Source: Lathyrus oleraceus
Lineage: Eukaryota > Streptophyta > Magnoliopsida > Fabales > Fabaceae
Direction of reading: 5' to 3'
Assembly: GCF_024323335.1 (NCBI RefSeq)
Contig: NC_066581.1
Coordinates: forward strand, 343,916,399-343,980,398
Length of the DNA: 64,000 nucleotides
Shown: positions 16,563 through 49,069 of the stretch, piece by piece
Layout: each line of letters begins with the position of its first letter
Position numbering within the stretch: the first letter of the stretch is position 1
Position numbers and translations under genes: made by a program
The notes under the pieces: generated by a model
What the model saw: only the letters and a program-made list of their open reading frames with translations
The model's database searches: none
Told to the model about the DNA's origin: nothing

Positions 16563-16568
16563 CTTTTC

Positions 16569-19489
16569 TGTAGCGGGGTATTCGTTACCATTAGAGATAT
16601 TGACTAAATCCAAGGTAAATCATACAAGTCGAGTCACTATAGCGGGGTATTCGTTACCATTAGAGATATTGACTAAATCCAAGGTAAATCATACAAGTCG
16701 AGTCACTGTAGCGGGGTATTCGTTACCATTGGAGATATTGACTAAATCCAAGATAAACCATACAAGTCGAGTCGCCACCGCACTTCTATTTATCCAAAGG
16801 AATGGTTAGAAAGCGAACAAAAACCTAATAGTTTCAACAAAAACTAATAAAAGAAACGGAGATCTGGGTAAGGGGGTTGGTTATGCAATGGGAAGGTGTT
16901 AGGCACCCAAAACATCCTAGGTACTCCTAGGGAGCCCTTTTCATACTTGTTGTAAGGTAGTTTGTCTTGTGAAAATTTTATTTGTGCAAACATGATTGAA
17001 GAGATGAGAAGAGAATGTACAAGTTATTTACATTTTGTGTTTGGATGGATAAACCCATTGCCTACGTACCATCTTATAAAAAGATTAGGATCAAAACCTC
17101 ATAGTTCGGGGTAAAAATCTCAAAACAAATTGGTGAATTGATTGGTCCAAAAGCCTTAAGGTCTTTTGTTATCAAAGGGAGAAAACTCAACCTAAAACCA
17201 CAAATCCACCATGTGAGGATAACTTCAACATGCTAGTGAGGGGTTAACCCTATAATAAGCATGGAAGACTCATTGTCTATCACTAAGGATATAGGTGAGT
17301 ATGACATCTACCACAAGGATAACTCAAACCTAATAGCTAAGGGTTATGGAAAATTTTGATTAAGAAAGTGGCCATTGGAACCACAAAAGGGAAATTTGAA
17401 TGGGTTATATTTACCAATTAGAAGTATACAAAAGTATTCAAAGTTGACTTAAAGATTCAATTCAAAATGAGTGTTATGAGAAGAAAGTTTGAAAATCAAA
17501 AGCATAAGGCTTAGGTTTCTAATGTTGAAAACAAAGGTTAAATGTTTGCACAAAAAGGGTTTTGGCTTGGGTTAGAGTGGAGAGATGAAGAAGAAGGGCT
17601 AAGTCCTAAGGAAAACAAAAAGATGAGGGATAAGAAATGAAACCACACTAGGAGTTCCTCTCTTGAGATCATATCGATGATCCAAGTAGATCCCATCCTT
17701 TGGAATAAGCAAGCACAAAGTATAAGCAATCAAACAAGTCTCATAAGAGATCCTCAATGTATCTTGTATCTTCCACTTGGATGAACATGGTAATGATCCT
17801 CCAATTAAGCTCAAATGGAAACTCCTAGTTCAAGAGCACACACATCAAAAGTTCCAAGGGGTAGAACACTCTCCTAACCAGAGACCAGGGAAACAACAAA
17901 CTAATAGGGAGATTAAGACTCGAGCCTAATAGTTGTCATGCAATCGACATCCCTAAGTTGAGGTCTCTAACAAGAAATTAACTCACAAGTAAACAAACAC
18001 CTTGAAATGAAGACCTCTGAAACCGCGATCTCTCAAGCTCTACTACTCCAGATCAACCTCCTTGAACTTCCTTTGAAGCTTTGTGCAAAAAGAAATGGCT
18101 GAATTCACTTGAATATGCTTCAAGTTCCAAATCCGATCCACATGATATTGCTCTTGAACTGCTCAAAATCTTGATGAATTGCACCAAACAATGGATGATT
18201 CTTGATCAGTGAAGCATGAGGATCAAGAATATACAAGGATCTTTGAGGTTTGTGTGAAGAAAAATGCAAATCGAAGAGAGAGAAAATTGAGAGAGTTCTT
18301 GAATTTTGATCTGAAATTGTTTTTTATGGCAGTTATGATTAAGGTTTTGGTACTTATAATCCTTGCTAATAACAATGCTAATCCTCTTTTCCATTTACTA
18401 ATCATGATTAGTGAGATATGAAGCAACTTGACAAAATGCAAAATGAGCTCACATGCCCATAATACACGTGTTCAGCGTCATGCTAGGGCTTCAATTCACT
18501 CAAGAACAACCAAGGGTCAGGATTTGAGGATTATTTTGCTTACATCTCAAGCCAAAAATGAATGGTGAAGATTTACTTCAAAATGAACATGTGTGAAATA
18601 ATGAACATTTGACCATGATTCCTTTGCACGATTGAGCCAAATGATGTTACTTTGAGATGCCTTGAACATGAGAAGCACTTTGCAAAAAAAAAATGAACCA
18701 ATTTGAAGCATTACATCAAAAGTTATGCCATTTTGAATTTCCATGCACACTTTGTGATCGAATGACCATAACTTCTCAACCATTCATCATATGGACATGA
18801 ATTAGGACTTTTTGGAAAGGGGAGACAAAAATCTACAACTTTCATGTTCACCACAAATCCATTTGAAACTTCTTTTACATTGACAAGTCAAGTTGAAAGT
18901 GGACCAAAACTTGCCAAATTTGGAAACTTTGAATTATAGGTCATTTTCCATTTTTAGTAACTTTTGCCATGACCTTTGAATCTTCAAGATGGATGTTTAT
19001 AATGATGAATAGACCCCATTTGAACATGATTGAGGTGTCTCAACTCATTTCCCCACCTCATAGCCCTCAGTTGACTGCACAGTTGACTTTTGGTCCTCTA
19101 CTAGTTGGTGAAATTGAGCCTCTACCACTTGGTGAAATTGCTTCAAAATGAAACCCTAGCTCATGTAAGCTCCTTATAATAATCATGTGATCCTCATCCC
19201 AAGAAAATACCTCATCTTTTGCACAACTGATCTTCTTGAAGCTCTTGACCTGGTGATTGCTTAAGCTACAAACAAAAGATGTTAGTGACATATTTTTGTG
19301 CTTTTGGTTAGTAAATAAAACAAGAAAAGCAATGATATACAATTCAAGCATGCTTGGTGATCTCAAACCACTCACAAGAGATCCCTACCCAAAGGGAAAG
19401 GGAGCCAAGATGTTCAATGATCCTTAAGGCTATGCAATGCAATGTTATGATGCCATGAGGGATCTTAGGGACAAAATTGGGTTCTTACA
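16569..19489 (-). repeat. LTR1-type LTR, complete from TGTAAGAACCC to GCTACA
   Basis: This 2.92-kb LTR has clean TG...CA ends. It shares its outer ~100 bp and the terminal kilobase near the primer binding site with LTR2, but its middle (about 17850-19000) is different. I did not find the two 20-bp leader palindromes in it. The end near the PBS carries a 69-bp triplication. Confidence 0.75.
16572..16778 (-). repeat. 69-bp tandem triplication at the LTR end
   Basis: Three units of 69 bp (16572-16640, 16641-16709, 16710-16778) each begin AGCGGGGTATTCGTTACC. The first two end in GAGTCAC and the last in GAGTCGCCAC, the same ten bases as the PBS edge at 16554-16563. Element B has one unit (about 48980-49045). 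Confidence 0.93.
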
Positions 19490-22206
19490 GTCACCACCGC
19501 ACTTCTATTTATCCAAAGGAATGGTTAGAAAGCGAACAAAAACCTAAAAGTTTTATCGAATCAAAAACTAGTAAAAGAGAGTCAGAGATCTGGGTAAGGG
19601 GGTTGGTTATGCAATGGGAAGGTGTTAGGCACCCAAAACATCCTAGGTACTCCTAGGGAACCCTTTTCATACTTGTGGTAAGGTTGTTATTTTTTTTGTG
19701 AAAATTTGTTTGTGCAAACATGATTGAAGAGATGAGAAGAGAATATACAAGTTATTTACATTTTTGTGTTTGGATGGACAAACCCATTGCCTATGTACCA
19801 TCTTAAAAAAGATTAGGATCAAAACCTCGTAGTTCGGGGTAAAAATCTCAAAATGAGTTGGTGAATTGATTGGCCCAAAAGCCTTAAGGTCTTTTATTAT
19901 CCAAGGGAGAAAACTCAACCTAAAAACCACAAATCCACCATGTGAGGATAGCTTCAACATGCTAGTGAGGGGTTAACCCTATAATAAGCATGGAAGACTC
20001 ATTGTCCATCACTAAGGATATAGGTGAGTATTACATCTACCACAAAGATAACTCAAACCTAATAGCTAAAGGGTTTGAAAAAGTTTTGATTAGAAAGTGG
20101 TCATTGAAACCACAAAAAGACATTTGAATGGGTTATATTTACCAATTAGAAATATATACAAAATGGTCAAAGTTGATTTAAAGATTCAATTCAAAATAAG
20201 TGTTATGAAAATAAAGTTTGAAAATCAAAAGCATAAGGCTTAGGTTTCTAATGTTGAAAACAAGTATTAGATATTTGCACAAAGATTTTGGCTTGGGTCA
20301 GAGTGGAGAGAAGAAGAAGAAGGGCTAGAGTCCTAAGCATGTAAGAGGTAAGGAATAAGAAACAAAACCACAATGGAGTTCCTCTCTTGAGATCATATTG
20401 ATGATCCAAGTAGCTCCTATCCTTTGGAATAAGCAATCACATAAGCATGAACTCAAGCAATCATCAGTCAAATGAACTCTTGGAAAGACTCCTCAATGTA
20501 TCTTCGATCTCTCTCTCTTAGAGGCTCATGGTAATGGCTCCTCAAGTTTGAATCAAGATGAAATCCCTAGCACAAGAACACACACATCAAAAGGTTCTAT
20601 TTACAAATCAAAGAATGGACAAGAGAGAGTTTAGAATATGGTCCTTTCAATGTTCATCTTCAAGCTTTAAGCATTCTAAAAGCATGAGGCCTAGTTGCTC
20701 TTTGACATTTAAGCATTCTAAAGGCATGAGGCCTAGTTGCTCTTCAAACTCCATTAGCTTAGGTAAAGTCCTAAGATCTAAGTCCATTTTGTCCAATTCT
20801 TTGCATTTGGTTCACAACAATCAAAACAAAACACAAGCACAAAAGTATATACACAATTATGTGCTCAAGTAAGCAAAAGGCAAATGTCATTAACATAAAC
20901 ATGTGCTCAAGTGAGCAAAGGGAAAAGAAAATGTATAATATGTGCAAGAATAGTAAATTGCATTAAAAGTAAAGAGCAAAAAAGTAAATGTTAATTGTTA
21001 ATGGTTAGTGTTAGTAGTTAGTGTGCCATAAGGCAAATTTAGCGCTATGTTAAGCAATCGTAATTGGACTTATGTAGAAGTCACAACTATCTGAGGCCGG
21101 TCAATAATAATGTAGGCAACAACACAAGTTAGAAGTCTTGATTAGTGAACCAAGTTCCAACAGCTTGCCATGCCAAAAAGAAGAAGAGAATTGATCTTGT
21201 ATTGGTTTAAGTCTTTTGCATAATTTAGGAAACAACCTATCCTTAATGCAAAGCCATTCACTTGATCAATTGATCAAGATGAATTAGATTTGAATCAAGG
21301 AAGGTTAAGTCTCCCTAATCAATGCTAACTTATCAACCTTCAACTCATTGATCAAAAAAGAAAAAGAAGAAGAAGAAGAAAGAGATGAATAATGGAAAAG
21401 GAAAAAGGAAAGAATAAAGTGCATAAGGTGAAATAAAATGTATCAATCCATGTGTGTTGACCAAATGACATTGAGAGTCAAAGTCAAACAATGAGAAATC
21501 AGAAATGAGATGAAGATTGGAGGTCAAACAATAAGCAAAATATTTTTGGTATTTTTAATATTAAAATAAACTTGAATTAAAAATAAAAGAAAGGTCAAAC
21601 TTCAAAATCACTTCAAATCAACCTTGAAAGGTCCAAGTGATTTATCCTGATTTCAATAAGGTCAAACAAAGTTTGACAAAAAATTTCAGCATTTTTAAAA
21701 GTCAGAAACTATTTTTAATCAATTAAAAATGAATAAAAATAACCTAATTGAACTAAAATCTCAAATAAATCACAAATCAGTTAAAAAATTGATGAGAATA
21801 TTTTTCATAGATTCATCATCATTCAAATAGGTTAGGAAAATATTTTTTGTATTTTTTGAATATCAAAAACTATTTAAAATGAATTAAAAATAACCAGAAA
21901 AGAGAAAATTCACAAAAAATACCAAATCACAAAATAAAAAATATTAAAAATCAAAATTAGAAACTACAATTTATTTGGAGAAGAATGCAATTGGTCCCAT
22001 CAGAAATTAGAAAATAAGAAAAATCAGGAAGCGTTAGATGTGGTTTCATTAATTGACGTGGCACATCTAATGGTCCAGAGGCGCGCGCTCACCATGAGTC
22101 CAAGTCAACAGCACCACACACAACATTAAAACAAGTCATAACAATGGAAGCCATGATTCAATCTGGAAATCATCATCAACGACCTAGATTCAAACTGGAA
22201 AGGTGG

Positions 22207-22226
22207 ACGGTGGTGTACACCACCGT
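22207..22226. other. Palindrome P2 in the LTR2-type copy
   Basis: This is identical to the 20-bp palindrome at 2044-2063 although the flanking DNA differs by indels. Confidence 0.8.
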
Positions 22227-22303
22227 CTTCTCCGGCGAGGTCCAGAAATTGCAGGTTTAAAAAACTTAACCAAAATACACGATCCATACATCATTGGAAA
22301 GCT

Positions 22304-22323
22304 GGGATGATGTACATCATCCA
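22304..22323. other. Palindrome P1 in the LTR2-type copy
   Basis: GGATGATGTACATCATCC (22305-22322) is perfect; the outermost base pair is lost by a C-to-A change at 22323. It is 449 nt from the TATA box, the same spacing as in the other LTRs. Confidence 0.78.
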
Positions 22324-22762
22324 TGTACCACTCAATTCCACTCTAGATCTCTATATTGAGAGAAATCAGAGATGAAAATTCTGTGGTATTCAAGTGAACT
22401 TCATGGATTTCAACAATTAAGTACTCAAAATAATTGCCTCTATGAAGAGGACTTCAGCCAACACAATATCCAAGCAAATAGATCAATAAATGGTGAGTTT
22501 CGAAGAAAAAACCAGTTGAAGAACAACCTTGGATTCTGGAGATTTGAGCTTGCTGTCTTGCTTCCTTTGACCAAACAGAAGAACAATGGAGTGTGAGAGA
22601 GAGGTCTAGGAACTTTAGATCTAGAAATTCAACCTGATTTAGTTGAATTTCAAATCTGAGAAATTGAAGAAAATTGGAATAGTTCCTTTAGGTGTGGCTC
22701 GGTTTTTAGTTCAGCAGCATTTCAGGTTGATTCATGGATGAAATTTGAATGGAGTGAGGCTC

Positions 22763-22772
22763 TTATTTATAT
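22763..22772 (-). promoter_or_regulatory. TATA box of the LTR2-type copy in the 5' LTR
   Basis: TATATAAATA on the minus strand is at the same LTR position as 2611-2620. This copy would drive element A transcription toward lower coordinates. Confidence 0.65.
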
Positions 22773-24284
22773 ATGGAAAGGCAAGGTAAGTGTGATCAAA
22801 GCCGTGTGCATGGAATTGGATATTCATTGCATGGGCTTGCATGATCATTCAAAAGGCCCAAATTCAATGCCAAATGCACTCTGAAGCATAACTGAGCTAA
22901 AATGGTCGTGGAATTGGCAATGCACAAGCTTGTATAATGAGTTTCAACATGTTATGCATAATCATGCCTAAAACTTTTCCTATTCGAAAATGCCATTTGC
23001 AAAATCCAAACATGAGCATGTGAGTAATGGTTGGAAAGGTTTTGATGTAAGGAACAATTATTATGTTAGGAACAAATCCATTTGAAGTGTGCAAATTGGT
23101 GAAATTGAGTTTAAAGTGCAAGGTGCAAAACATGTAAAGGCAAAGTTTCTAAATTTGGCCAATGTTCAAGCCCCTCTGTTTTGATGATACAAACTTCAAA
23201 TGAAAAAACATCCAACATCAAAGTTGTAGATCTTTTCAAGACAATCAAAATGGACTTATATTTTGCATCATTTGGAATTTTGATGAAAGCGTTATGCGCA
23301 CTTGAAGTTGGACTTTTTTGCCTTTCAATGCATTGGGCCAAAGTGACCTATAATGTCTTGCATTATCACATGTATTCCCTTTGAGATTTTGAAATTTTGT
23401 TCAACATAACATTTGAAGTAGATATATTAATCTTTCCAATGCATTTGATCCCACCTCAAAATCACAAAAAATGAATGAGTTATGTTCTTGGGAAGTTGAC
23501 CCAAAATTAGGGTTTCAGTCAAAATGACCTATAATGTCTTGGAATGGGAGATGACCTTCCAAGCTTCAAATAATTTTTTTTGAACATAAAAATTGTTCAT
23601 ATTGTCCTTAAGGACATTTTTGCTTTAGGGATCATCTCCATTAGACCAACACATAAAAAGTTAGGTCTTAGTGCATTTCAAAATAATCAGATGAATTGAC
23701 TGATCAATTTCTCAAATCCATGACTCATATCTTGATGAATTGATGATTGAGGACACTCAAATAAGTTAAAATATGCATGAAATGATGAGTTAAAGAACTT
23801 CCCTTGATTGTATTTGATGATGGGCTGAGGTTGCTTCAAGAGCAAGGCATTGTGGTGCACAGATGAATTAGGGTTTCTTTGGGGAACAAACCTCAAACCC
23901 TTTTACTTGCTTTGATCAAAATGATGAATTCAGATGCCAAGGAAGCACATTTGATGGAGGGGAGCTTTGGGAACTATTACCATGCTTCCTTTCATCTTCT
24001 CTTGGCCATACCTTTGTACTTATGATCTCATAGAGACTTTTGACCTTGTGATTGCTCAAGCTACAAACAAAAGATGTTAGTGACATGTTTTTATGCTTTT
24101 GGTTAGTAAACAAAATAAGAAAATAAAATGATATACAATTCAAGCATGCTAGGTGATCTCAAACCACTCACCAGATATCCTACCCAAAGGTAAAGGGAAC
24201 CAAGATGCTTGTGATCCTTGAGTCTTTGCAAATGCAATGTTATGATGCCATGAGGGCTCTTAGGGTCAAAATTGGGGTCTTACA

Positions 24285-25411
24285 ATAGTATGAGTAACTA
24301 CCCCCCCCCCTCCCAAGGGAGTCATACATATATAAGAGGAGTCAATATGCATATGGAATGACCAAAATATGAAAAATCCCACATTTTTCCTATTTAGCCA
24401 AAATAAATGTTTATTTCCAAAGCTTTGACGACTTTTAAGTACAGATAACGTGTTTTGAAGGCTTGAGAACTATAGAAATCGTGGTGGATTAAAGATTTCA
24501 TGAACTTTAGTGATTGAAGACCTCTTTTCTTCCATTAATTTGTAATTTCTACACTTTATGTTTTTCTTTTCTTTTATAGTATGAGTAGCTAACCCCCCCC
24601 CCCCCCCCCCCCCCCCGCCTCCCCAAGGAGTCATACACATATATGAGGAGGCCATAAGCGTATGGAATGACCCAGATATGAAAAATCCCACATTTATCCT
24701 ATTTATCCAAAAAAAAATGTGAATTTCCAAAGGTTGGACGAATTTTTAGTACAAAGAACATGTTTAGAAGGTTGGAGAACTAAAGAACTCGTGGTGGATC
24801 AATGAATGCATGAACTTTAGTGATTGAAGACCTCTTTTCTTCCATTAATTTGTAATTTCTACACTTCCTGTTTTGCTTTTCTTTAATAGTATCAATAGCT
24901 AACCCCCCATCACCCCCCCCCCCCCCACACACATATTCCAGCATACGGGTATCACCAGAAAGGGGGAAAAATGATGCCTCTGCTCATCCGCGTATGGGAT
25001 GGCCCGTACGCGTTTGAGGCCATCCATCCAAGGGCCTGCTACGCAGACCAACACTTTACACGTATGACTCTAGTTGGGCCATACGCCCTACCCTGAGCCA
25101 TACGCATATGAGGTAGTACAAAAAGAAGCCATACGTGTATGACGTAGTACAAAAGGGAGTCATACACATATACGAGGAGGCCATATGCGTATGGAGTGAC
25201 CCGAATATAAATAATCCCACATTTTTCCTATTTAGCCAAAAAAATGTAAATTTCCAAAGGTTAGATGACTTTTGAGTACAAAGAACGTGTTTTGAAGGCT
25301 GGAGAACTGAAGAACTTATGGTGAATCAAGGATTTCATGAACTTTAGTGATTGAAGACCTCTTTTCTTCCATTAATTTGTAATTTCTATACTTTCTGTTT
25401 TGCTTTTCTTT
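24285..25411. repeat. Satellite segment duplicated at 26242-27346
   Basis: Three consecutive units (short, short, long) share private variants with 26242-27346, such as the TATATAAGAGGAGTCAATATG phrase and the unusual AAATAAATGTTTATTTCC. This indicates a block duplication with an offset of about 1957 bp. Confidence 0.75.
24593..24616. repeat. Homopolymer run of 24 C
   Basis: This is one of the longest of the C tracts found in nearly every unit; a 24-base run also lies at 35647-35670. The minus strand is a pure G run with potential for quadruplex formation. Lengths of such runs are unreliable in sequencing. Confidence 0.85.
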
Positions 25412-28400
25412 AATAGTATGAGTAACTAACCCCCCCACCTCCCCCCAAGGGGCTCATACACATATACAAGGAGGCGATATGCGTAGTGAATGACTCAGAT
25501 ATAAAAAATCCCCCATTTTTCCTATTTAACAAAAAAAATGTGATTTTCCAAAGGTTGGACGACTTTGGAATATAGAGAACGTGTTTTGAAGGATGGAGAA
25601 CTGAAGAACTCGTGGTGGATCAAGGCTTTCATGAACTTTAGTGATTGAAGACCTCTTTTCTTCCATTAATTTGAAAATTTTACACTTTCTGTTTTGCTTT
25701 TCTTTAATAATATGAGTAACTAACCCCTTCACCCCTCACACACACACATTCCAGCATACGCATATCACCAGAAAAGGGGAAAAATTGAAGCCTCTGCTCA
25801 TCCGCTTATGGGATGACCCGTAGGCGTGTGAGGCCATCCAGCGAAGGCCCTCCTACGCAGACCAACACCTTACACGTATGACTCTAGTTGGGCCATACGC
25901 CCTACCCTGATCAATACGCGTATGAGGGATACGCGTATGAGGTAGTACAAAAAGGAGCCATACGTGTATGAGGTAGTACAAAAGGGAGTCATACACATAT
26001 ACGAGGAGGCCATATGCGTATGGAATGACCCGGATATAAAAAATCCCACATTTTTCCTATTTAGCCAAAAAATGTGAATTTCCAAAGGTTGGATGACTTT
26101 TGAGTACAGAGAATGTGTTTTAAAGGTTAGAGGACTGAAGAACTCGTGGTGGATCAAGGATTTCATGAACTTTAGTGATTGAAGACCTTTTTTTTTCCAT
26201 AAATTTTTAATTTATACACTTTCTGTTTTTCTTTTCTATAATAGTATGAGTAGCTACCTCACCCCCCTCCCAAGGGATCATACATATATAAGAGGAGTCA
26301 ATATGCATATGGAATGACCAAAATATGAAAAATCCCACATTTTTCCTATTTAGCCAAAATAAATGTTTATTTCCAAAGTTTTGACGACTTTTAAGTACAG
26401 ATAACGTGTTTTGAAGGCTTGAGAACTGTAAAACTCGTGGTGGATTAAAGATTTCATGAACTTTAGTGATCGAAGACCTCTTTTCTTCCATTAATTTGAA
26501 ATTTTTACACTTTATGTTTTTCTTTTCTTTTATAGTATGAGTAGCTAACCCCCCACTCCCCCTCCCCAAGGGAGTCATACACATATATGAGGAGGCCATA
26601 AGCGTATGGAATGACCCGGATATGAAAAATCCCATATTTGTCCTATTTAGCCACAAAAAAAGGGGAATTTCCAAAGCTTGGACGACTTTTTAGTACAAAG
26701 AACATGTTTTGAAGGTTGGAGAACTGAAGAACTCGTGGTGGATCAATGATTGCATGAAGTTTAGTGATTGAAGACCCCTTTTCTTCCATTAATTTGTAAT
26801 TTCTACACTTTCTGTTTTGCTTTTCTCTTATAGTATCAGTAGCTAACCCCCATCACCCCCCCCACACACATTCCAGCATACGGGTATCACCAGAAAGGGG
26901 GAAAATTGATGCCTCTGCTCATCCGCGTATGGGATGGCCCGTACGCGTTTGAGGCCATCCATCCAAGGGCCTCCTACGCAGACCAACACTTTACACGTAT
27001 GACTGTAGTTGGGCCATACGCCCTACCCTGAGCCATACACATATGAGGTAGTACAAAAATAAGCCATACGTGTATGACGTAGTACAAAAGGGAGTCATAC
27101 ACATATACGAGGAGGCGATATGCGTATGGAATGACCCGGATATGAAAAAGCCCACACTTTTCCTATTTAGCCAAAAAAATGTGAATTTCCGAAGGTTGGA
27201 TGACTTTTAAGTACAGAGAACGTGTTTTTAAGGCTGGAGAACTGAAGAACTCGTGGTGAATCATGGATTTCATGAACTTTAGTGATTGAAGACCTCTTTT
27301 CTTCCATTAATTTGTAATTTCTATACTATTGGTTTTGCTTTTCTTTAATAATATGAGTAGCTACCCCCCTCCCCCCCACACCCACACACATTCCAGCATA
27401 CTCGTATCAACAGAAAGGGGGAAAATTTTATGCCTCTGCTCATCCGCGTATGGGATGGCCCGTACACGGATGAGGCCATCCAGCGAAGGCCCTCCTACAC
27501 AGGGCAACAACTTACACGTATGACTCTAGGTGGCCCATACGCCCGACCCTGATCCATACGCGTATGAGGTAGTACAAAAAGGGGCCATACATATATGAGG
27601 TAGTACAAAAGGGAGTCATACACATATACGAGGAGGCCATATGCGTATGGAATTACCCAGATATGAAAAAGCCCACATTTTTCCTATTTAGCCAAAAGAA
27701 ATTGAAATTCCAAAGGTTGGATGACTTTTGAGTACAAAGAACGTGTTTTGAAGGCTGGAGAACTCAAGAACTCGTAGTGGATCAAGGATTTCATGAATTT
27801 TAGTGATTGAAGACCTCTTTTCTTCCATTAATTTGTAATTTCTATACTTTCTGTTTTTCTTTTCTATAAGAGTATGAGTAGCTACCCCCCCCCCCCCCCC
27901 CCCCCGCCCTACAACGGAGTCATACACATATCCGAGGAGACCATATGCATATGAAATGACCCAGATATGAAAAAGCCCATATTTATCCTATTTAGCCAAA
28001 AAAATCTGAATTTTGAAAGGTTGAACGAGTTTTGAGTACAGAGAACGTGTTTTGAAGGCTGGAGAACTGAAGAACTCCTGGTGGATCAAGGATTTCATGA
28101 ACTTTAGTGATTGAAGACCTCTTTTCTTCCATTAATTTGTAATTTCTACACTTTCTGTTTTGCTTTTCTTTAATAGTATCTGTAGCTAACCCCCCATCAC
28201 CCCGCACACACACATTCCTGCATACGGGTATCACCAGAAAGGGGGCAAAATTCATGCCTCTGCTCATCCGCGTATGGCATGGCCCGTACACGTTTGAGGC
28301 CATCCATCCAAGGGCCTCCTACGCAAACCAACACTTTACACGTATGACTCTAGTTAGGCCATACGCAATACCCTGAGCCATACGCATATGAGTTAATACA

Positions 28401-29382: not shown

Positions 29383-29490
29383 GTGTAGGGCGTATGGCCC
29401 AACTAGAGTCGTACGTGTAAGGTGTTCGCCTGCATAGGAGGGCCTTCGCTGGATGGCCTCATACGTGTATGGGCCATCCCATACGCGGAT
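29383..29490. repeat. Micro-inversion inside a long satellite unit
   Basis: Between GCCTCTACTCA and TGATAGTA, about 108 bp run in reverse complement relative to all other long units. GGGCGTATGGCCCAACTAG appears where others read the complement, and CATACGCGGATG closes the segment. The breakpoints fall at TCA/TGA, which are complementary. Confidence 0.88.
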
Positions 29491-36736: not shown

Positions 36737-38089
36737 ATAGTATGAGTAGCTACCCCCCCCCCCCCCAAGGGAGTGATACACATATACGAGGAGGCTATAT
36801 GCGTATGGAATGACCCGAATATGAAAAAGCCCACATTTTTCCAATTTACCCAAAAAAATGTGAATTTCCAAAGGTTTGACGACTTTTGAGTACAAAGAAC
36901 GTGTTTTGAAGGTTTGAGAACTGAAGAACTCGTGGTGGATCAAGGATTTCATGAACTTTAGTGATTCAAGACCTATTTTCTTCCATTAATTTATAATTTC
37001 TACACTTTATATTTTTATTTTCTTTAATAGTATGAGTAGCTACCCCCCCCCCCCCCCCCCCCCAAGGGAGTCATACACATATACGAGGAGGCCATATATG
37101 CGTATGGAATGACCCGGACATGAAAAATCTTACATTTTTCCTATTTAGCCAAAAAAATGTGAATTTCCAAAGGTCGGATGACTTTTGAGTACAGAGAACG
37201 TGTTTTGAACGATGAAGAACTGAAGAGTTCGTGGTGGATCAAGGATTTCATTAACTTTACTGATTGAAGTCCTCTTTTCTTCCATTAATTTCTAATTTCT
37301 ACACTTTCTGCTTTTTTTTCTTTAATAGAATGAGTGGCTACCCTCCCCCCCCCCCCCCAAGGTAGTCATACACATATATGCGTATGGAATGACCCGGATA
37401 TGAAAAATCCCACATTTTTCCTATTTAGCCAAAAAAATGTGAATTTCCAAAGGTTGGACGACTTTAAGGTACAAAGGACGTGTTTTGAAGGCTGGAGAAT
37501 TGAAGAACTCGTGGTGTATCAAAGATTTCATGAACATTAGTGATTGAAGACCTCTTTTCTTCCATTTATTTGTAATTTCTACACTTTCTCTTTCGCTTTT
37601 CTATAGTAGTATGACTAGCTACCCCCCTCCCCCCCACACACACCTTCCAGCATACACGTATCACCAGAAAGGGGAAAAATTTCATGCCTCTGCTCATCCG
37701 CGTATGGGATGGCCCGTACCCGTATGAGGCCATCCATGCAAGGCCCTCCTACGCAGACCAACACTTTACCCGTATGACTCATGTTGGGCCATACGCCCTA
37801 CCATGAGCCATAAGTGTATGAGGTAGTACAAATGGGAGTCATACACATATACGAGGAGGCCATATGCGTATGGAATGACCCGGATATAAAAAAGCCCACA
37901 CTTTTCCTATTTACCCAAAAAAATGTGAATTTCCAAAGGTTGGATGACTTTTGAGTATAGAGAACGTGTTTTGAAGGCTAGAGAACTGAAGAAATCGTGG
38001 TGGATCAAGGATTTCATGAACTTTAGTGATTGAAGACCTCTTTTCTTCCATTAATTTGTAATTTCTATACTTTCTATTTTTCTTTTCTT

Positions 38090-40295
38090 TAATAGTATAA
38101 GTAGCTACCCTCCCCCCCCCCCCCCCACACACACACAAGGGAGTCATACACATATCCTAGGAGGCCGTATGCATATGGAATGACCCGGATATGAAAAATC
38201 CAACATTTTTCCTATTTAACCAAAAAAATGTGAATTTCCAAAGATTGGACGACTTTTGAGTACATAGAACATGTTTTGAAGGCTTGAGAACTGCAGAACT
38301 CGTGGTGGATCAAGGATTTCAGGAACTTTTGTTATTGAAGACCTCTTTTCTTCCATTAATTTGAAATTTCTACACGTTCTATTTTTCTTTTCTTTAATAG
38401 TATGGGTAGCAAACCCCTCCCCCCCAAGGGAGTTAGTCACATATACAAGAAGACCATATGCGTATGGAATGACTCGGATATGAAAAATCCCACATTTTTC
38501 CCATTTTACCAAAAAAATGTGAATTTCCAAAGGTTGGATGATTTATGAGTACAAAGAACGTGTTTTGAAGGCAGGATAACTGAAGAACTCGTGGTGGATC
38601 AAGGCTTTCATGAACTTTAGTGATTGAAGACCTCTTTTCTTCCCTTAATTTGTAATTTTTACACTATGTGTTTTACTTTTCTTTAATAATATGAGTAGCT
38701 AACCCCCCCCCCCCCCCTCACACACACACACATTCCAGCATACGCGTATCACCAGAAAGGGTGAAAAATTCATGCATATGCTCATTCGCGTATGGGATAG
38801 CCCGTCACATATGAGGCCATGCAGCGAATACCCTCATACGCAGGCCAACACCTTACACGTATGACTCTAGTTGGGCCATACGCCCTACCCTGATCCATAG
38901 ACGTATGAGGTAGTACAAAAGGGAGTCACACACATATACGAGGAGGCCATATGCGTATTGAATTACCCGAATATGAAAAAGCCCACATTTTTCCTATTTA
39001 GCCAAAACAAATTGAATTTCTAAAGGTTGGAAAACTTTTGAGTACATAGAATGTGTTTTGAAGGCTGAAGAACTCGTCGTGGATTAAGGATTTCATGAAC
39101 TTTAGTGATCGAAGACCTCTTTTTTTCTATTAATTTGTAATTTCTACACTTTCTACTTTTCTTTTCATTAATAGTATGAGAAACTTACCCCCTCCCCCCC
39201 ACCCCCCACAAGGGTGTTATACACATATACGAGGAGGCCATATGCATATGGAATGACCCGAATATGAAAAATACCACATTTTTCCTATTTAGCCAAAAAA
39301 ATGTGAATTTCCAAAGGTTGCACGAATTTTGAGTATAGAGAAAGTGTGTTGAAGGATGGAGAACTGAAAAACTCGTGGTGGATCAAGGATTTGTATGAAC
39401 TTTAGTGATTGAAAACCGCTTTTCTTCCATTAATTTCTAAGTTTTTATACTTTCTGTTTTTTTCTTTAATAGTGTGAGTAGCTACCCCCCCCCCCCCCCC
39501 AAGGTAGTCATACATATATACGAGGAGGCTATATACGTATGGAATGACCCGGATATGAAAAATCTCACTTTTTTCCTATTTTGCCAAAAAAATGTGAATT
39601 TCCAAAGGTTGGATGACTTTTGAGTACAAAGAACATGTTTTGAAGGCTAGAGAACTGAAGAACTCATGGTGGATCAAAGATTTCATGAACTTTAGTGATT
39701 GAAAATCTCTTTTCTTCCATTAATTTGTAATTTCTACACTTTCTGTTTTGCTTTTCCTTAATTGTATGAGTAGCTACCCCCCCCCCCCCCCCCCCACACA
39801 CACACACATACACACATTTCAGCATACACGTATCATCAGAAAGGGGGTAAAATTCATGCCTCTGCTCCTCTGTGTATGGGATGGCCTGTACGCGTATGAG
39901 GCCATCCAGCCAAGGCCCTCCTACACAGACTAACACCTTACACGTATGACTCTTTTTGGGCCATATGCCCTACCCTGAGCCATACGCGTTTGAGGTAGTA
40001 CAAAAAGGAGCCATACGTGTATGTGGTATTACAAAAGGGATTCATACACATATACGAGGCGACCATATGCATATGGAACGACGCGGATATGAAAAAGCGC
40101 ACATTTTTCCTATTTAGCCAAAAAAAAGTGAATTTCAAAAAGTTGGAGGACTTTTCAGTATAGAGAATGTGTTTTGAAGGCTGGAGAACTGAAGAACTCA
40201 TTGTGGATCAAGGATTTTGTGAACTTTAGTGATTAAAGACCTCTTTTCTTCCATTAATTTGTAATTTCTACACTTTCTGTTTTTCTTTTCTTTAA
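38090..40295. repeat. Higher-order satellite repeat, diverged copy 3
   Basis: The unit lengths (307, 287, 486, 297, 294, 535) parallel the two upstream six-unit blocks, and variants such as the GAAACTTACC box recur. Sequence identity is visibly lower, so this is an older relative. Confidence 0.7.
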
Positions 40296-42389
40296 TAGTA
40301 TGACTAGCTAACCCCCCCCCCCCCCCCAAGGTAGTCATACACATATACGATGAGGCCATATGCGTATGGAATAACCCGGATATGAAAAATCCCATATTTT
40401 TCCTATTTAGCCAAAAAAATGTGAATTTCCAAAGGTTGGACGACTTTTGAGTATAGAGAACGTGTTTTGAAGGATGAAGAACTAAAGAACTCGTAGTGGA
40501 TCAAAGATTTCATTAAATTTAGTGATTGAAAACCTCTTTTCTTCCATTAATTTGTAATTTCTACACTTTCTGTTTTACTTTTCTTTAATAGTATGAATAG
40601 CTACCCCCCCCCCCCCCCCACACACACACACACACATTCTAGCATACACTTATCACCATATAGGGGGGAAAATTCATGCCTCTGGTCATCCGCGTATGGG
40701 ATGGCCTGTACGCGTATGAGTCCATCCAGCCAAGGCCCTCCTACGCAGACCAACACCTTACACGTGGTGGATCAAGGATTTCATGAACTTTAGTGATTGA
40801 AGACCTCTTTTCTTCTATTAATTTGTAATTTCTACACTTTCTGTTTTTCTTTTCTTGAATAGTGTGAGTAGCTAGCTGTAAGACCTCAATTTTGGCCCTA
40901 AGATCCCTCATGACATCATAACATTGCATTTGCAAGCCTCAAGGATCATAAGCATCTTGGTTCCCTTTGCCTTTGGGTGGGACCTCTTGTGAGTAGTTTG
41001 AGATCACCAAGCATGCTTGAATTATGTATCATTTCTTTTCTCATTTTTTTTACTAACCAATAGCACTAAAATATGTCAGTAACATCTTTTGTTTGTAACT
41101 TGAGCAATCACAAGGTCAAAAAGCTTCTAGGTGATCCTTTGTGTAATGATATGGCCAAGAGAAGATGAAGGCAAGCATGGAAATGGTTCCCAAAGCTCTA
41201 ATCCATAAAATATGCCTCCCTAGTATCTCAATTCATCATTTTGATCAAAGCAAGTCAAAGGATTTGAGGTTTGTCTCTCAAAGAAAACCTAATTCATCTG
41301 TGTACCAAGTGTGCCTTGCCAATGAAGCAACCTCAGCCCATGATCAAAAACAATCAAGGGAAGTTCTTTAATTCATCATTTCATACATATTTGAACTTAT
41401 TTGAGTGTCCTCAATCATCAATTCATCAAGATATGGGTTGTGGACTTGAGAAGTTGATCAGTCAATTCATCTAACTATCTTGAAATATGCTGAGACCTAA
41501 CTTTCTATGTGTTGGTATAATGGAGATGATACCAAAAGAAAATGTTCTTAAGGAAAATATGAACAACTTTCATTTTCATAAAAAATTGATTTGAAGCTTG
41601 GAAGGTCATCTCCCATTCCAAAACATTATAGGTCATTTTGATTGAAACCCTAATTTTGGGTCAACTTCCCAAGGACATAACTCATGCATTGTCTATGATT
41701 TTGAGGTGGGATCAAATGAATTGGAAAGCTTATTATGTCTAATTAAAATGTTATGTTGAACAAAATTTCAAAATATCAAAGGAAATACATGTGATAGTGC
41801 AAAACATTATAGGTCACTTTGGACCAATGCATTGAAAGGCAAAAAAGTCCGACTTCAAGTGCCCATAACTTCTTCATAAAAAATCTAAATGATGCAAAAT
41901 CTTATTCCATATTGATTGTCTTGAAAAGATATACAACTTTGATGTTGGAGGTTTTTTCATTTGAGGCTTGAATCACCAATACAAAAGGGCTTGAAGTTGG
42001 TTCAATTTGACAAAATTCTCAAAGGCATGTTTTACACTATGAACTTCATGGCCTGTTTTCATAAATTTACACACTTCAAATGAGTTTTTGCTCAACATAA
42101 CATTTGTTCCTTATGTCAAGACCTTTCCAACCATTACCCACATGCTTGTGTTTGGATTTTCTAAAAGGGACTTTCGAAGACTTGAAGTTTTATGACCAAT
42201 TATGCATAACATGGTGAAACTTCATATGCAAGCAATTGGAGTGCAAACCACACATCCAAACCTTCTCCAAATCATTTCAGCATCCATTTGAATTGGCTTT
42301 TGGGCCCTCCATGCGCCTGTACAGGCCCATGCATGGAGGCCTTCAATTTTCATGCACACGAAATTCACCTTGCTTGCATCAGGTTTTGC

Positions 42390-42398
42390 TATAAATAG
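42390..42398 (+). promoter_or_regulatory. TATA box of element B 5' LTR
   Basis: TATAAATAG in the context GCTATAAATAGAGG is a strong plant TATA motif. It matches position and context in the 3' LTR (63051-63059). Transcription probably starts near 42420-42430. Confidence 0.78.
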
Positions 42399-42837
42399 AG
42401 GTGCATACCTCCATCATAAACCAACCTGAAGGCACCTGATATGCTGCACAATTGAATCCCTAACCATACCTAAAGGAACTAGTTTACACTTTCTTCAAAA
42501 TTCAGATCTAAAATTCAATTGCATTTGGTTGAATTTTCAGATCTAAAGTTCCTAAACCTCCATTATCTAATCCATAGAACTTATGTTTGGCAAAAGGAAG
42601 CAAGGAAGGTAGCTCAAATCTTCACAATCCAAAGGTATGGTTCAACTGGTTTTTTCTTCGAATCTCTTTGTTCCATGATCTATTTTCCTGGCCAATGTGT
42701 TTTCTGAAGTCCTCACTTGAGAGGCAAGCCAGTGGTGGTTTTGATTTTGTGTTTTAATGAACTGCAATTTATGTACCTGAATCTTCCAGCTCAGATTTCT
42801 TATTCCATAGAAAGTTTGAGTATAATTCAAGGTTACA

Positions 42838-42857
42838 GGGGTGATGTACATCACCCC
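42838..42857. other. Palindrome P1 in element B LTR leader
   Basis: GGGGTGATGTACATCACCCC is a perfect 20-bp palindrome 448 nt after the TATA box. Compared with element A, one base pair is changed on both arms (A-T to G-C), preserving symmetry. Confidence 0.82.
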
Positions 42858-42944
42858 AACTTCATTTTGGTGTGTGGATCGTTAGTTTTGGTTGAGTTTG
42901 GAGGACCTGCAACTCTGGCCGGAGCTTGTATGCTCGCCGGAGAA

Positions 42945-42966
42945 GACGGTGGCGCTGGCCACCGTC
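42945..42966 (+). other. Inverted repeat P2 in element B LTR leader
   Basis: GACGGTGGC and GCCACCGTC flank the four bases GCTG, giving a 9-bp stem 107 nt after P1. Element A has the perfect palindrome P2 here. In the 3' LTR of B (63287-63308) two C-to-T changes would leave G-U pairs in RNA. Confidence 0.8.
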
Positions 42967-43848
42967 CACCATGCCAGATTGAATCTGGACCATTGGATGC
43001 ATCTCCCATGTTTTAATCTCAGCCATGCGTTTGGATTACTTGCTTTAATGCCAGGTGTGACGCGTTTGACTTGGACTCACCATGAGCGCGCATCTCCATT
43101 TTATTTTCTTTTATCCCATTTATTTTCAAAAATTCATAACTTCTTCATTTTAATTTCAAAAAATATGGGACCAATTGCATTATTTCTCTTTTTAATTCTA
43201 GTTTCTAAAAATGATTTTTAATATTTTTTATTTCATCATTTGATATTTTTTATGAATTTTCTCTTTTTTGGCTATTTTTAATTCATTTTAAATATTTTTT
43301 GATATTCAAAAAATACAAAAATATTTTCTCAACCTATTTGAATGATGATGGATCTATGAAAAATATTCTCATCAATTTTTTAATTGATTTGAGATTTATT
43401 TGAGATTTTAGTTCAATTAGGTTATTTTTATTCATTTTTAATTGATTAAAAATAGTTTCTGACTTTTAAAAATGCTAAAAAAAATTGTCAAACTTTGTTT
43501 GACCTTGTTGAGCTTAGGATAAATCACTTGGACTTTTCAAAGTTGATTTGAGGTGATTTTGAAGTTTGACATTTCTTTAATATTTTAATTCAAGTTTATT
43601 TTTAAATATTAAAAATGCCAAAAATATTTTGTTCATTTCTTGACTTCCAATCTTCATCTTATTTATGTTTTTGATTGTTTGACCATGATCCTCAATGTCA
43701 TTAGTCAACACTTGTTGATTGATACATTCTATTTCATTTAATATCCTTTATTCTTTTCATTTCCATTTCCATTATTCATCTCCTTCTTCTTCTTCTTTCT
43801 TTTTGATCAATGAGTTAAAGGTTGATAAGTTAGCATTGATTAGGGAGG

Positions 43849-46800
43849 CTTAATCTTCATTGATTCAAATCTAATTCATCTTGATCAATTGATCAAGTGA
43901 ATGGCTTTGCATTAAGGATAGGTTGCTTTGTAAATCATGCAAAAGGCTTAAACCAATACAAGATCAATTTTCTTCCTCGTTTTTGGCATGGCAAGTTGTT
44001 GGAACTTGGTTCACTAATCAAGACTTCTAACTTGTGTTGTTGCCTACATTATTATTGACCGGCCTCAGATAGTTGTGACTTCTACATAAGTTCAATTACG
44101 ATTGCTTAACATAGCGCTAAATTTTCCTTATGGCACACTAACTACTAACACTAACCATTAACAATTAACATTTACTTTTTTACTCTTTACTTTTAATGCA
44201 ATTTACTATTCTTTCACATATTATCCATTTGCTTTTCCCTTTGCTCACTTGAGAACATGTTTATGTTAATACCATTTGCCTTTTGCTCACTTGAGCACAT
44301 AATTGTGTATATACTTTTGTGCTTGTGTTTTGTTTTGATTGTTGTGAACCAAATGCAAAGAATTGGACAAAATGGACTTAGATCTTAGGACTTTACCTAA
44401 GCTAATGGAGTTTGAAGAGCAACTAGGCCTCATGCCTTTAGAATGCTTAAATGTCAAAGAGCAACTAGGCCTCATACCTTTAGAATGCTTAAAGCTTGAA
44501 GATGAACATTGAAAGGACCATATTCTAAACTCTCTCTTGTCCATTCTTTGATTTGTAAATAGAACCTTTTGATGTTTGTGTTCTTGTGCTAGGGATTTCA
44601 TCTTGATTCAAACTTGAGGAGCCATTACCATGAGCCTCTAAGAGAGAGAGATCCAAGATACATTGAGGAGTCTTTCCAAGAGTGCATTTGACTGATGATT
44701 GCTTCAGTTCATGCTTATGTGATTGCTTATTCCAAAGGATAGGAGCTACTTGGATCATCATTATGATCTCAAGAAAGGAACTCCATTGTGGTTTTGTTTC
44801 TTATTCCTTACCTCTTACATGTTTAGGACTCTAGCCCTTCTTCTTCTTCTCTCCACTCTGACCCAAGCCAAAATCTTTGTGCAAACATCTAATACTTGTT
44901 TTCATTATTAGAAACCTAAGCCTTATGCTTTTGATTTTCAAACTTTATTTTCATAACACTTAACCTTCCTTGATTCAAATCTAATTCATCTTGATCAATT
45001 GATCAAGTGAATGGCTTTGCATTAAGGATAGGTTGTTTTGTAAATCATGCAAAAGGCTTAAACGAATACAAGATCAATTTTCTTCCTCGTTTTTGGCATG
45101 GCAAGTTGTTGGAACTTGGTTCACTAATCAAGACTTCTAACTTGTGTTGTTGCCTACATTATTATTGACTGGCCTCAGATAGTTGTGACTTCTACATAAG
45201 TTCAATTACGATTGCTTAACATAGCGCTAAATTTTCCTTATGGCACACTAACTACTAACACTAACCATTAACAATTAACATTTACTTTTTTACTCTTTAC
45301 TTTTAATGCAATTTACTATTCTTTCACATATTATCCATTTGCTTTTCCCTTTGCTCACTTGAGAACATGTTTATGTTAATACCATTTGCCTTTTGCTCAC
45401 TTGAGCACATAATTGTGTATATACTTTTGTGCTTGTGTTTTGTTTTGATTGTTGTGAACCAAATGCAAAGAATTGGACAAAATGGACTTAGATCTTAGGA
45501 CTTTACCTAAGCTAATGGAGTTTGAAGAGCAACTAGGCCTCATGCCTTTAGAATGCTTAAATGTCAAAGAGCAACTAGGCCTCATACCTTTAGAATGCTT
45601 AAAGCTTGAAGATGAACATTGAAAGGACCATATTCTAAACTCTCTCTTGTCCATTCTTTGATTTGTAAATAGAACCTTTTGATGTTTGTGTTCTTGTGCT
45701 AGGGATTTCATCTTGATTCAAACTTGAGGAGCCATTACCATGAGCCTCTAAGAGAGAGAGATCCAAGATACATTGAGGAGTCTTTCCAAGAGTGCATTTG
45801 ACTGATGATTGCTTCAGTTCATGCTTATGTGATTGCTTATTCCAAAGGATAGGAGCTACTTGGATCATCATTATGATCTCAAGAAAGGAACTCCATTGTG
45901 GTTTTGTTTCTTATTCCTTACCTCTTACATGTTTAGGACTCTAGCCCTTCTTCTTCTTCTCTCCACTCTGACCCAAGCCAAAATCTTTGTGCAAACATCT
46001 AATACTTGTTTTCATTATTAGAAACCTAAGCCTTATGCTTTTGATTTTCAAACTTTATTTTCATAACACTTAACCTTCCTTGATTCAAATCTAATTCATC
46101 TTGATCAATTGATCAAGTGAATGGCTTTGCATTAAGGATAGGTTGTTTTGTAAATCATGCAAAAGGCTTAAACGAATACAAGATCAATTTTCTTCCTCGT
46201 TTTTGGCATGGCAAGTTGTTGGAACTTGGTTCACTAATCAAGACTTCTAACTTGTGTTGTTGCCTACATTATTATTGACTGGCCTCAGATAGTTGTGACT
46301 TCTACATAAGTTCAATTACGATTGCTTAACATAGCGCTAAATTTTCCTTATGGCACACTAACTACTAACACTAACCATTAACAATTAACATTTACTTTTT
46401 TACTCTTTACTTTTAATGCAATTTACTATTCTTTCACATATTATCCATTTGCTTTTCCCTTTGCTCACTTGAGAACATGTTTATGTTAATACCATTTGCC
46501 TTTTGCTCACTTGAGCACATAATTGTGTATATACTTTTGTGCTTGTGTTTTGTTTTGATTGTTGTGAACCAAATGCAAAGAATTGGACAAAATGGACTTA
46601 GATCTTAGGACTTTACCTAAGCTAATGGAGTTTGAAGAGCAACTAGGCCTCATGCCTTTAGAATGCTTAAATGTCAAAGAGCAACTAGGCCTCATACCTT
46701 TAGAATGCTTAAAGCTTGAAGATGAACATTGAAAGGACCATATTCTAAACTCTCTCTTGTCCATTCTTTGATTTGTAAATAGAACCTTTTGATGTTTGTG

Positions 46801-48281
46801 TTCTTGTGCTAGGGATTTCATCTTGATTCAAACTTGAGGAGCCATTACCATGAGCCTCTAAGAGAGAGAGATCCAAGATACATTGAGGAGTCTTTCCAAG
46901 AGTGCATTTGACTGATGATTGCTTCAGTTCATGCTTATGTGATTGCTTATTCCAAAGGATAGGAGCTACTTGGATCATCATTATGATCTCAAGAAAGGAA
47001 CTCCATTGTGGTTTTGTTTCTTATTCCTTACCTCTTACATGTTTAGGACTCTAGCCCTTCTTCTTCTTCTCTCCACTCTGACCCAAGCCAAAATCTTTGT
47101 GCAAACATCTAATACTTGTTTTCATTATTAGAAACCTAAGCCTTATGCTTTTGATTTTCAAACTTTATTTTCATAACACTTAACCTTCCTTGATTCAAAT
47201 CTAATTCATCTTGATCAATTGATCAAGTGAATGGCTTTGCATTAAGGATAGGTTGTTTCCTAAATTATGCAAAAGACTTAAACCAATACAAGATCAATTC
47301 TCTTCTTCTTTTTGGCATGGCAAGTTGTTGGAACTTGGTTCACTAATCAAGACTTCTAACTTGTGTTGTTGCCTACATTATTATTGACCGGCCTTAGATA
47401 GTTGTGACTTCTACATAAGTCCAATTACGATTGCTTAACATAGCGCTAAATTTGCCTTATGGCACACTAACTACTAACATTAACCATTAACCATTAACAT
47501 TTATTTTTTGCACTTTACTTTTATGCAATTTACTATTCTTGTACATATTATTATTTTGCTTTTTCCTTTGCTCATTTGAGCACATGTTTATGTTAATACC
47601 ATTTGCCTTTTGCTCAGTTGAGCACATATAATTGTGTATATATCATTTGTGCTTGTGTTTTGATTGTTGTTGACCATAATGCAAAGAATTGGACAAAATG
47701 GACTTAGACTTTAGGACTTTCCCTATGAAAATTAGGATTCAAAGAGAAACTAGGCATTGGGCCTTTAGAGTGCTATAAAAGTCAAAGAGCAACTAGGCAT
47801 TGGGCCTTTAGAATGCTTAATGTTGAAAGATGATCTTGAAATGACCAATTTCTAAACTCTACTTGTTCATTCCTTGCTTGTTTGCTAGAACCTTTTAATG
47901 TCTGTGTTCTTGTGCTAGGGATTCCAACTTGATCCATTGAGGAACCATTGCCATGAGCCTCTAAGAGAGAGGAATCTAAGATACATTGAGGAGCTTTCCA
48001 ATAGTTCATTTAATTGTTGATTGTTTGAGTTTATTCTTATGTGATTGCTTATTCCAAAGTATGTGAGCTACTTGGATCATCAATATGATATCAAGAGAGG
48101 AACTCGATTTGTGGTATTGTTTCTTTTCCCTTACCTCTTGTATGTTTAGGATTTAGCCATTCTTCTTCTTCCCTCTACTCTATCCCAAGCCAAAAACTTT
48201 TGTGCAAACATTCAACACTTCTTTTCAAACATTAGAAACCTAAGCCTTATGCTTTTGATTCTCAAACTATCTTTTCATAAC
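43849..48281 (+). repeat. Four tandem copies of a ~1.1-kb LTR segment
   Basis: Copies are 43849-44957, 44958-46067, 46068-47177 and 47178-48281. The period is exactly 1110 bp between copies 2, 3 and 4. Copies 2 and 3 look identical; copy 1 differs only at a few sites near its start; copy 4 starts like them but diverges after about 47260. Junctions share ACTTA microhomology (CATAACACTTA joined to ACTTAACCTTCC). Element A LTRs have a single copy. The open frames of 104, 78 and 62 codons in each copy are simply repeated with it. Confidence 0.93.
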
Positions 48282-49051
48282 ACTTATTTTGAATGAACTT
48301 TTAAACCAACTTTGACCTTATTTTTGTAAATACTTTTCATTGGTAAATATAACCCCTTCAAATGTCTTTTGTGGTTTTAATGGCGACTTCCTTAATCAAA
48401 CTTTTCATAACCTTTAGCTATTAGGTTTGAGTTATACTTGTGGTAGATGTAATACTCACCTATATCCTTAATGATGGACAATGAGTCTTCCATGCTTATT
48501 ATAGGGTTAACCCCTCACTAGCATGTTGAAGCTATCCTCACATGGTGGATTTGTAGTTTTTAGGTTGAGTTCTCTCCCTTGGATAACAAAAGACCTTAAG
48601 GCTTTTTGACCAATCAATCCACCAACTCATTTTGAGATTTTTACCCCGAACTACGAGGTTTTGATCCTAATCTTTTTTAAGATGGTACGTAGGCAATGGG
48701 TTTATCCATCCAAACACAAAATGTAAATAACTTGTATATTCTCTTCTCATCTCTTCAATCATGTTTGCACAAATAATTTTTCACAAAATACCAACCTTAC
48801 AACAAATGTGAAAAGGGCTCCCTAGGAGAACCTAGGATGTTTTGGGTGCTTAAAACCTTCCCATTGCATAACCAACCCCCTTACCCAGATCTCTGTTTCT
48901 TTTATTAGTTTTTGTTGAAACTTTTAGGTTTTTGTTCGCTTTCTAACCACTCCTTTGGATAAATAGAAGTGCGGTGGCGACTCGACTTGTATGGATTACC
49001 TTAGATTTAGTCAATATCTCTAATGGTAATGAATACCCCGCTACAGAAAAG

Positions 49052-49069
49052 TGGCGACTCTGCTGGGGA
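49052..49069 (+). promoter_or_regulatory. Primer binding site of element B
   Basis: TGGCGACTCTGCTGGGGA is identical to element A. A partial copy of its first part, GTGGCGACTC, lies inside the LTR at 48974-48983, 77 nt upstream of the same ten bases at 49051-49060. Confidence 0.9.

What the first reader, a model, noticed from the sequence alone, without database searches (positions are those of the whole stretch)
16569..49045. Two Ogre elements head to head, with LTR ends at nearly the same phase of a satellite
The LTR of A ends at 24284 directly before ATAGTATGAGTAACTA, and the LTR of B starts at 40877 directly after TAGTGTGAGTAGCTAGC. Both contacts fall within the same ~18-bp box of a 290-520 bp unit, just before the C run. 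Independent random insertions would be unlikely to share this phase. Possibilities are target preference for this box, growth of the array from an LTR-flanking seed, or recombination that used LTR ends as boundaries.
Basis: partly seen in the sequence, partly recalled or inferred. Interest (0 to 1): 0.75.

Follow-up and report, generated by a model that had tools for sequence, protein, structure and literature searches.

The report
Retrotransposons landing in one satellite box
In one tandem-repeat array of a large plant genome, all four giant Ogre-type retrotransposons found in it landed separately in the same roughly 20-letter stretch of the repeat unit, which looks like a real landing-site preference only partly explained by the known short target motif.

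Summary
A (minus strand) and B (plus) are Ogre-type elements whose 5' LTRs face each other across a satellite block, with contacts at 24284/24285 and 40876/40877. The array continues outside A and B: 43 kb in six blocks, and all 111 matches of a genome search lie there (40 of 281 candidates scored). Four Ogre-type insertions split it, A, B, C and D, all within one 23-bp stretch of the ~374-bp unit. TSDs: ATAGT (A), CTAAC (C), CTAAC inferred (B), C-run (D). Joined flanks give continuous satellite, so the elements entered an existing array; growth from an LTR seed and joins at LTR ends are rejected. Four centres within 18 bp has probability 3.4e-4 under uniform insertion, 4.2e-4 after weighting by a motif from 65 other Ogre insertions. 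That motif is already published for plant LTR elements. CTAAC is its best phase in the unit and ~4.5-fold enriched genome-wide, so the motif partly explains B and C, but A and D poorly. A structural or chromatin hotspot between a T-rich tract and the C-run is the likeliest remainder, untested; n=4. B also has satellite-like letters in place of its PPT, seen in 0 of 43 other inner ends.

The parts
24285..40876 (+). Satellite block between A and B: 45 units, mostly ~290-310 or ~470-540 bp; one of six blocks (43 kb in all) of an array spanning C3:343852927-343996857
1..24284 (-). Ogre-type element A (outer end of its 3' LTR lies outside the window at -804); flanked by TSD ATAGT
16569..24284 (-). 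5' LTR of A, interrupted by a nested LTR insert
16707..19489 (-). Nested LTR insert (read as a solo LTR) inside the 5' LTR of A; TSD GTCAC at 16702-16706 and 19490-19494
40877..64000 (+). Ogre-type element B (3' LTR ends outside the window at 70863); left flank CTAGC, right flank CTAATAAC, original TSD CTAAC inferred
40877..49045 (+). 5' LTR of B with three near-identical 1110-bp tandem copies and a fourth diverged one
24285..24300 (+). Box copy at the right side of A: ATAGTATGAGTAACTA; its first 5 bases are the TSD of A
40859..40876 (+). Box copy at the left side of B: ATAGTGTGAGTAGCTAGC; its last 5 bases are the left flank copy of the TSD of B
61525..61534 (+). Satellite-like letters AGTAGCTAAC directly before the 3' LTR of B, in place of the usual PPT

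Best explanation
An existing satellite array was hit by at least four independent Ogre-type retrotransposons. Each integrated through its integrase with a ~5-bp target duplication, and all landed in one short box at the junction between successive satellite units (ATAGTATGAGTAGCTAAC and the first bases of the C-run). Two things combine. (1) The weak, roughly palindromic 5-bp target motif of plant LTR-element integrases (first base not T, last base not A), for which CTAAC in the box is the best phase of the unit. (2) An additional local hotspot, because the motif alone does not reproduce the clustering. I infer that (2) lies in DNA shape or chromatin: the box is a mixed-sequence island between a T-rich pyrimidine tract and a C-run (that such tracts are stiff and disfavour nucleosomes is recalled, not tested). 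Shown: satellite on both sides, TSDs of A and C, distinct elements, clustering, motif. Inferred: the structural cause, the original TSD of B, the TSD of D, and D being a solo LTR.
For: Junctions of A, B, C, D. Satellite on both sides and continuous empty sites (B, D; A, C). LTR identity within elements 94.9-96.7% (A, B, C), against 71-90% between A, B and D outside local 91-98% patches, and only partial ~69-76% matches for C: separate insertions. P(4 within 18 bp) 3.4e-4 uniform, 4.2e-4 motif-weighted; for C and D alone 0.005, or 0.0076 with a more generous window. Target motif from 65 flanks: first base T in 4, last base A in 2, agreeing with PMC6911290 section 8. CTAAC precedes 168 of 70,434 LTR starts, ~4.5 times background (using the 42-of-107 PPT share). 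53 of 57 CTAAC in the array lie in the box. One CACTA-like insert in the same array sits about 100 bp before the next box.
Against: Only four insertions, two of which prompted the idea. The 18-bp span was measured after seeing the data, and the C-and-D test window (centres 2-20) was stretched past the A-B span (2-15) to hold D. The TSD of B is imperfect; the TSD of D lies in a C-run, so its place is approximate, and its last LTR base is missing or changed. ATAGT is only at the 62nd and CCCCC at the 80th percentile of the motif, so the hotspot for A and D rests on position alone. Runs of 4 or more C or G near the 65 sampled insertions are not clearly enriched (4 in the last 12 bp; 1, 1, 4 and 2 in the next four stretches), against a general preference for C-runs, although CCCCC itself is ~3 times background (44 of 70,434). 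The satellite was found at one locus only (partial scoring), so phase could not be plotted elsewhere. The structural cause was not tested.
Confidence: 0.72

Rival explanations
1. Independent insertions, and the shared phase is explained by the known weak 5-bp motif plus chance; no special hotspot.
For: CTAAC is the best motif phase of the unit, C uses it and B probably did; n is only four; the published motif is general.
Against: Motif weighting raises the share of the box from 5.0% to only 7.1%, and four within 18 bp stays at 4.2e-4.
Confidence: 0.22
2. The array grew outward from a seed beside an LTR, so its ends keep the LTR contact phase.
For: The right end of the array (80459) also ends in the box, and the unit junction is the box plus C-run.
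Against: Satellite flanks each of the four elements on both sides; joined flanks match ordinary units across the joint; A and C have exact TSDs; the elements belong to different LTR groups.
Confidence: 0.02
3. Junctions made by recombination using LTR ends as boundaries (ectopic recombination, inversion between A and B, or segmental copies of one insertion).
For: A and B are inverted and share 97-98% patches; B carries satellite-like letters before its 3' LTR.
Against: A and C have identical TSDs on both sides; the main satellite orientation is the same in all six blocks; outside the patches, within-element LTR identity exceeds between-element identity.
Confidence: 0.02
4. Assembly artefact at C-runs.
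For: C-runs up to 27 bp are hard to assemble; D ends in one.
Against: Exact TSDs for A and C, and unit continuity across all four joints.
Confidence: 0.02

Closest known systems
L1-CS LINE insertions into CUS-TR24 satellite of Cuscuta europaea (PMC8091179, passages read)
   Same: [quoted passage not shown] simple-sequence arrays also arise within the monomer
   Different: Non-LTR element with endonuclease-like target words and very many copies; here LTR elements with an integrase, four insertions, one array
Ogre elements inserted in expanded Ogre-derived satellites of Lathyrus sativus (PMC7004042, passages and Discussion read)
   Same: Ogre elements in both orientations inside satellite arrays of a legume
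   Different: No insertion phase in the parts read; those satellites come from Ogre 3' UTRs, while the scored matches here show no Ogre-internal copies of this one
General target motif of plant LTR retrotransposons (PMC6911290, abstract, passages and section 8 read)
   Same: 5-bp TSD with first base not T and last base not A; reproduced here in 65 Ogre flanks
   Different: Describes a weak motif over many genomes, not clustering in one box of a tandem unit
ATHILA in Arabidopsis centromere satellites (only as cited in passages of PMC12477314; original not held)
   Same: A Ty3/gypsy lineage entering satellite arrays
   Different: Targeting of centromere arrays or their chromatin; phase data not seen by me

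Membership tests
Ogre (Ty3/gypsy, Tat lineage) | Extra ORF before gag (found as DUF7745; its role as Ogre ORF1 is recalled) | tested here: met
   A and B, C; not sought in D
Ogre (Ty3/gypsy, Tat lineage) | gag - RT - RNase H - integrase order, Ty3/gypsy type | tested here: met
   A: gag, RVT_1, RVT_3, Integrase_H2C2; B: RVT_1, RVT_3, Integrase_H2C2, no gag hit in the ORFs scanned; C: gag, RVT_1, RNase H, integrase not scanned
Ogre (Ty3/gypsy, Tat lineage) | PBS TGGCGACTCTGCTGGGGA next to the 5' LTR (assignment to tRNA-Arg recalled) | tested here: met
   A 16545-16564 minus, B 49050-49069 plus, C -52169; absent in D, read as a solo LTR
Ogre (Ty3/gypsy, Tat lineage) | Additional archaeal-type RNase H and RT-based placement in the Ogre clade | not tested
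   No tree built; the name Ogre rests on the rows above and, for D, on LTR similarity
Integrase-mediated insertion | Target duplication of ~5 bp | tested here: met
   A ATAGT, C CTAAC exact; nested LTR GTCAC, neighbour element F GGTAG
Integrase-mediated insertion | Target duplication for B and D | tested here: inconclusive
   B CTAGC / CTAATAAC; D inside a C-run
Satellite derived from an Ogre 3' UTR (Lathyrus type) | Short arrays of the same unit inside Ogre copies elsewhere | tested here: inconclusive
   All 111 matches lie at this locus, but only 40 of 281 candidates were scored

The most novel reading that the evidence does not exclude
The junction box of this satellite is a true integration hotspot for several Ogre lineages, set by local DNA shape or chromatin between a T-tract and a C-run. 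Tandem arrays can thus act as repeated landing pads, and insertion phase along a unit becomes a readout of what plant Ty3/gypsy integrases see.
Probability: 0.5. Interest if true: 0.62.

Novelty: new variant of a known kind. Interest (0 to 1): 0.5.

Why it matters
A tandem array offers the same target over a hundred times (115 boxes here), so insertion phase separates local sequence preference from regional effects. If the hotspot is real, LTR-element integrases have sharper local preference than the known 5-bp motif, in a group (Ogre) that is abundant in large legume genomes. It also gives a simple way to measure this in other arrays.

Tried and rejected
Array growth from an LTR seed: rejected by satellite on both sides and continuous empty sites. 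One insertion copied with the array: rejected by LTR divergence. B's satellite-like PPT as a subfamily variant: first I counted 0 of 42, but that sort used the PPT letters themselves. Repeated with a signature further upstream, 43 of 111 sampled LTR starts are inner ends and 0 of 43 have it. AGTAGCTARC plus LTR start occurs exactly at only three places in the genome, all at this locus; nine one-mismatch places elsewhere were not inspected. C-runs as a general Ogre target: not clearly supported. Literature on LTR elements sharing one phase of a satellite: the listings (no paper) showed none that I recognised, and one case for LINEs (PMC8091179); most listed papers were not opened. The 2023 ATHILA paper was not held. 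In PMC10027222 (pea centromere 6) I saw three passages only, none on insertion phase. Could not be run: counts of ATAGT and of the control CAATC before LTR starts. In one search the joint of A was mis-cut (no spanning match) and the right edge of C was taken wrongly; both were redone.

Full report
What was checked. The two contacts are exactly as described: LTR A ends at 24284 before ATAGTATGAGTAACTA and LTR B begins at 40877 after ATAGTGTGAGTAGCTAGC. The box has 46 matches in the window at up to 3 mismatches, all between A and B. Self-comparison shows A as 1-24284 with its second LTR cut by the window edge, and B as 40877-64000 likewise. Pfam finds DUF7745, gag, RT, RNase H and integrase pieces on the minus strand in A; in B it finds DUF7745, RT, RNase H and integrase pieces on the plus strand. 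PBS motifs lie at 16545-16564 (minus) and 49050-49069 (plus). So the 5' LTRs face each other.

The neighbourhood. The window is C3:343916399-343980398 of a 3.795-Gb assembly; seven large contigs and these elements suggest pea or a close relative (inference). I read 140 kb around it. In window coordinates the satellite continues at -63471..-56885, -33958..-23975, -6401..-799, 70868..72723 and 78051..80459, in the same main orientation; short pieces of ~110 bp also match inverted. That is 43,019 bases with 115 boxes, mean unit 374 bp. Unit lengths are 71 of 109 at 270-320 bp, 35 of 109 at 470-540 bp and 3 others. A genome search with a 232-bp unit piece gave 111 matches, all in this locus, with 40 of 281 candidates scored.

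Four insertions. C (plus, -56885..-33958) reads GTAGCTAAC|TGTAAG on the left and CCGCTACA|CTAACCCCCC on the right, so TSD CTAAC. D (plus, -23975..-6391) reads GTAGCTAACCCCCC|TGTAAG and CCCGCTAC|CCCCC. A (minus, -804..24284) reads AATAGT|TGTAGCGGG and TTACA|ATAGTATG, so TSD ATAGT. B (plus, 40877..70863) reads GTAGCTAGC|TGTAAG and CCGCTACA|CTAATAACCCC. D has no PBS. It is LTR sequence broken by a copia-type element and a further stretch, so I read it as a solo LTR. C has DUF7745, gag, RT and RNase H. Joined flanks match the satellite across the joint: 73 spanning matches for A and 39 for C, 73 each for B and D; the flanks' own source blocks were in the searched set.

Independence. LTR pairs are 95.2% (A), 95.5-96.7% (B, main pieces) and 94.9% (C) identical. 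Between elements, A and B are 79-90% with patches of 91-98%. D is 71-77% to A and B over its long 5' pieces and 77-85% over shorter ones. C matches A, B and D only locally, at 69-76% (a few pieces under 100 bp are closer). The elements are therefore not copies of one insertion.

Is it chance? Target centres relative to the box start are 2 (A), 15 (B, C) and about 20 (D). Drawing four sites at random from the array gives a span of 18 or less with probability 3.4e-4 (3.0e-4 and 3.8e-4). To ask how much the integrase motif explains, I took 111 LTR starts from elsewhere in the genome (coordinates; letters). I dropped 4: three with a changed LTR start and one near-duplicate. Of the rest, 42 are inner ends with a PPT and 65 have genomic flanks. 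The flanks have T first in 4 of 65 and A last in 2 of 65; 59 of 65 fit both rules. This is the motif published for plant LTR elements (PMC6911290 section 8). Weighted by it, the box holds 7.1% of insertion weight instead of 5.0%, its CTAAC phase is the best of the whole unit, and four within 18 bp still has probability 4.2e-4. C and D alone give 0.005 for centres 2-20, and 0.0076 for the wider -5 to 22; the first window was drawn to hold D. The queries return best matches, so the 111 are not a random sample.

A whole-genome pattern count supports the motif: TGTAAGACCYYAATTTTG occurs 70,434 times, CTAAC directly before it 168 times, C and the inner end of B included, and CCCCC 44 times, D included. 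With the sampled PPT share (42 of 107) and local background these are about 4.5 and 3.1 times expectation. The background comes from 161 kb near the window, so these are rough. ATAGT and a control 5-mer could not be counted.

Likely mechanism. Integration by the usual integrase route into an existing array, with the 5-bp motif making CTAAC attractive and a further local factor focusing insertions on the box. The box is a mixed-sequence island between a pyrimidine-rich, T-rich tract and the C-run; I infer DNA shape or nucleosome exclusion, without a direct test. The box is also where units join: the right end of the array stops in it (80459). The CACTA-like insert E (72724 to about 78051) sits about 100 bp before the next box at 78152, so not every mobile element shares the phase; that is one control only.

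A side trace. Before the 3' LTR, A has AAATAGGGGCATC and C AAATAGGGGCAGC; B has AAATAGTAGCTAAC. Of 111 sampled LTR starts, 43 are inner ends by an upstream signature that does not use the PPT letters; B also fits that signature, and 0 of the 43 have satellite-like letters. The 19-base word AGTAGCTARC plus LTR start is exact at only three places in the genome: left of C, left of B, and here. The simplest reading is conversion of the 3' LTR of B by a satellite-flanked 5' LTR, copying a few bases beyond the LTR. If the donor was B's own 5' LTR, it preserves the original CTAAC of B, now CTAGC. This is inference.

Known and new. Retrotransposons landing at preferred places in a satellite monomer are known for LINEs in Cuscuta (PMC8091179, passages), and Ogre elements inside legume satellites are known (PMC7004042, passages and Discussion). 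I saw no report of LTR elements sharing one phase of a satellite in the listings; most listed papers were not opened. It is a new variant of a known kind, resting on four insertions.

Noticed in passing
61515-61545: B has satellite-like AGTAGCTAAC before its 3' LTR instead of the usual PPT; likely LTR-to-LTR conversion reaching beyond the LTR edge
   Followed up: partly
43849-47182: Three near-identical 1110-bp copies in the 5' LTR of B, 97-98% like the LTRs of A although the first ~2.2 kb of B's 5' LTR and A's 3' LTR differ by ~21%: mosaic or converted LTRs
   Followed up: partly
16707-19489: Nested LTR insert, 87-91% like the LTR of A over its matching ends, inside the 5' LTR of A, TSD GTCAC; 69-bp LTR-end repeats beside it
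   Followed up: yes
80459 (L017) and -63471 (L009): The array ends on the right inside the box (GTAGCTAA|GGGGTGTCCC) and begins on the left just after the C-run position, so the box plus C-run is the unit junction; the left flank holds satellite-like TACGCGTATGAGG letters
   Followed up: partly
72724 to about 78051 (L016-L017): CACTA-like insert (CACTACGCC...GGCGTAGTC, possible TSD AAA) at another phase of the unit
   Followed up: partly
L014:2112-6827: copia-type element nested in D
   Followed up: partly
91761-108911 (L018, L019, L022): Ogre-type element beside the array with LTRs 98.4-99.3% identical, TSD GGTAG
   Followed up: partly
satellite array: Two unit size classes (~300 and ~500 bp) and short inverted pieces of ~110 bp
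   Followed up: no
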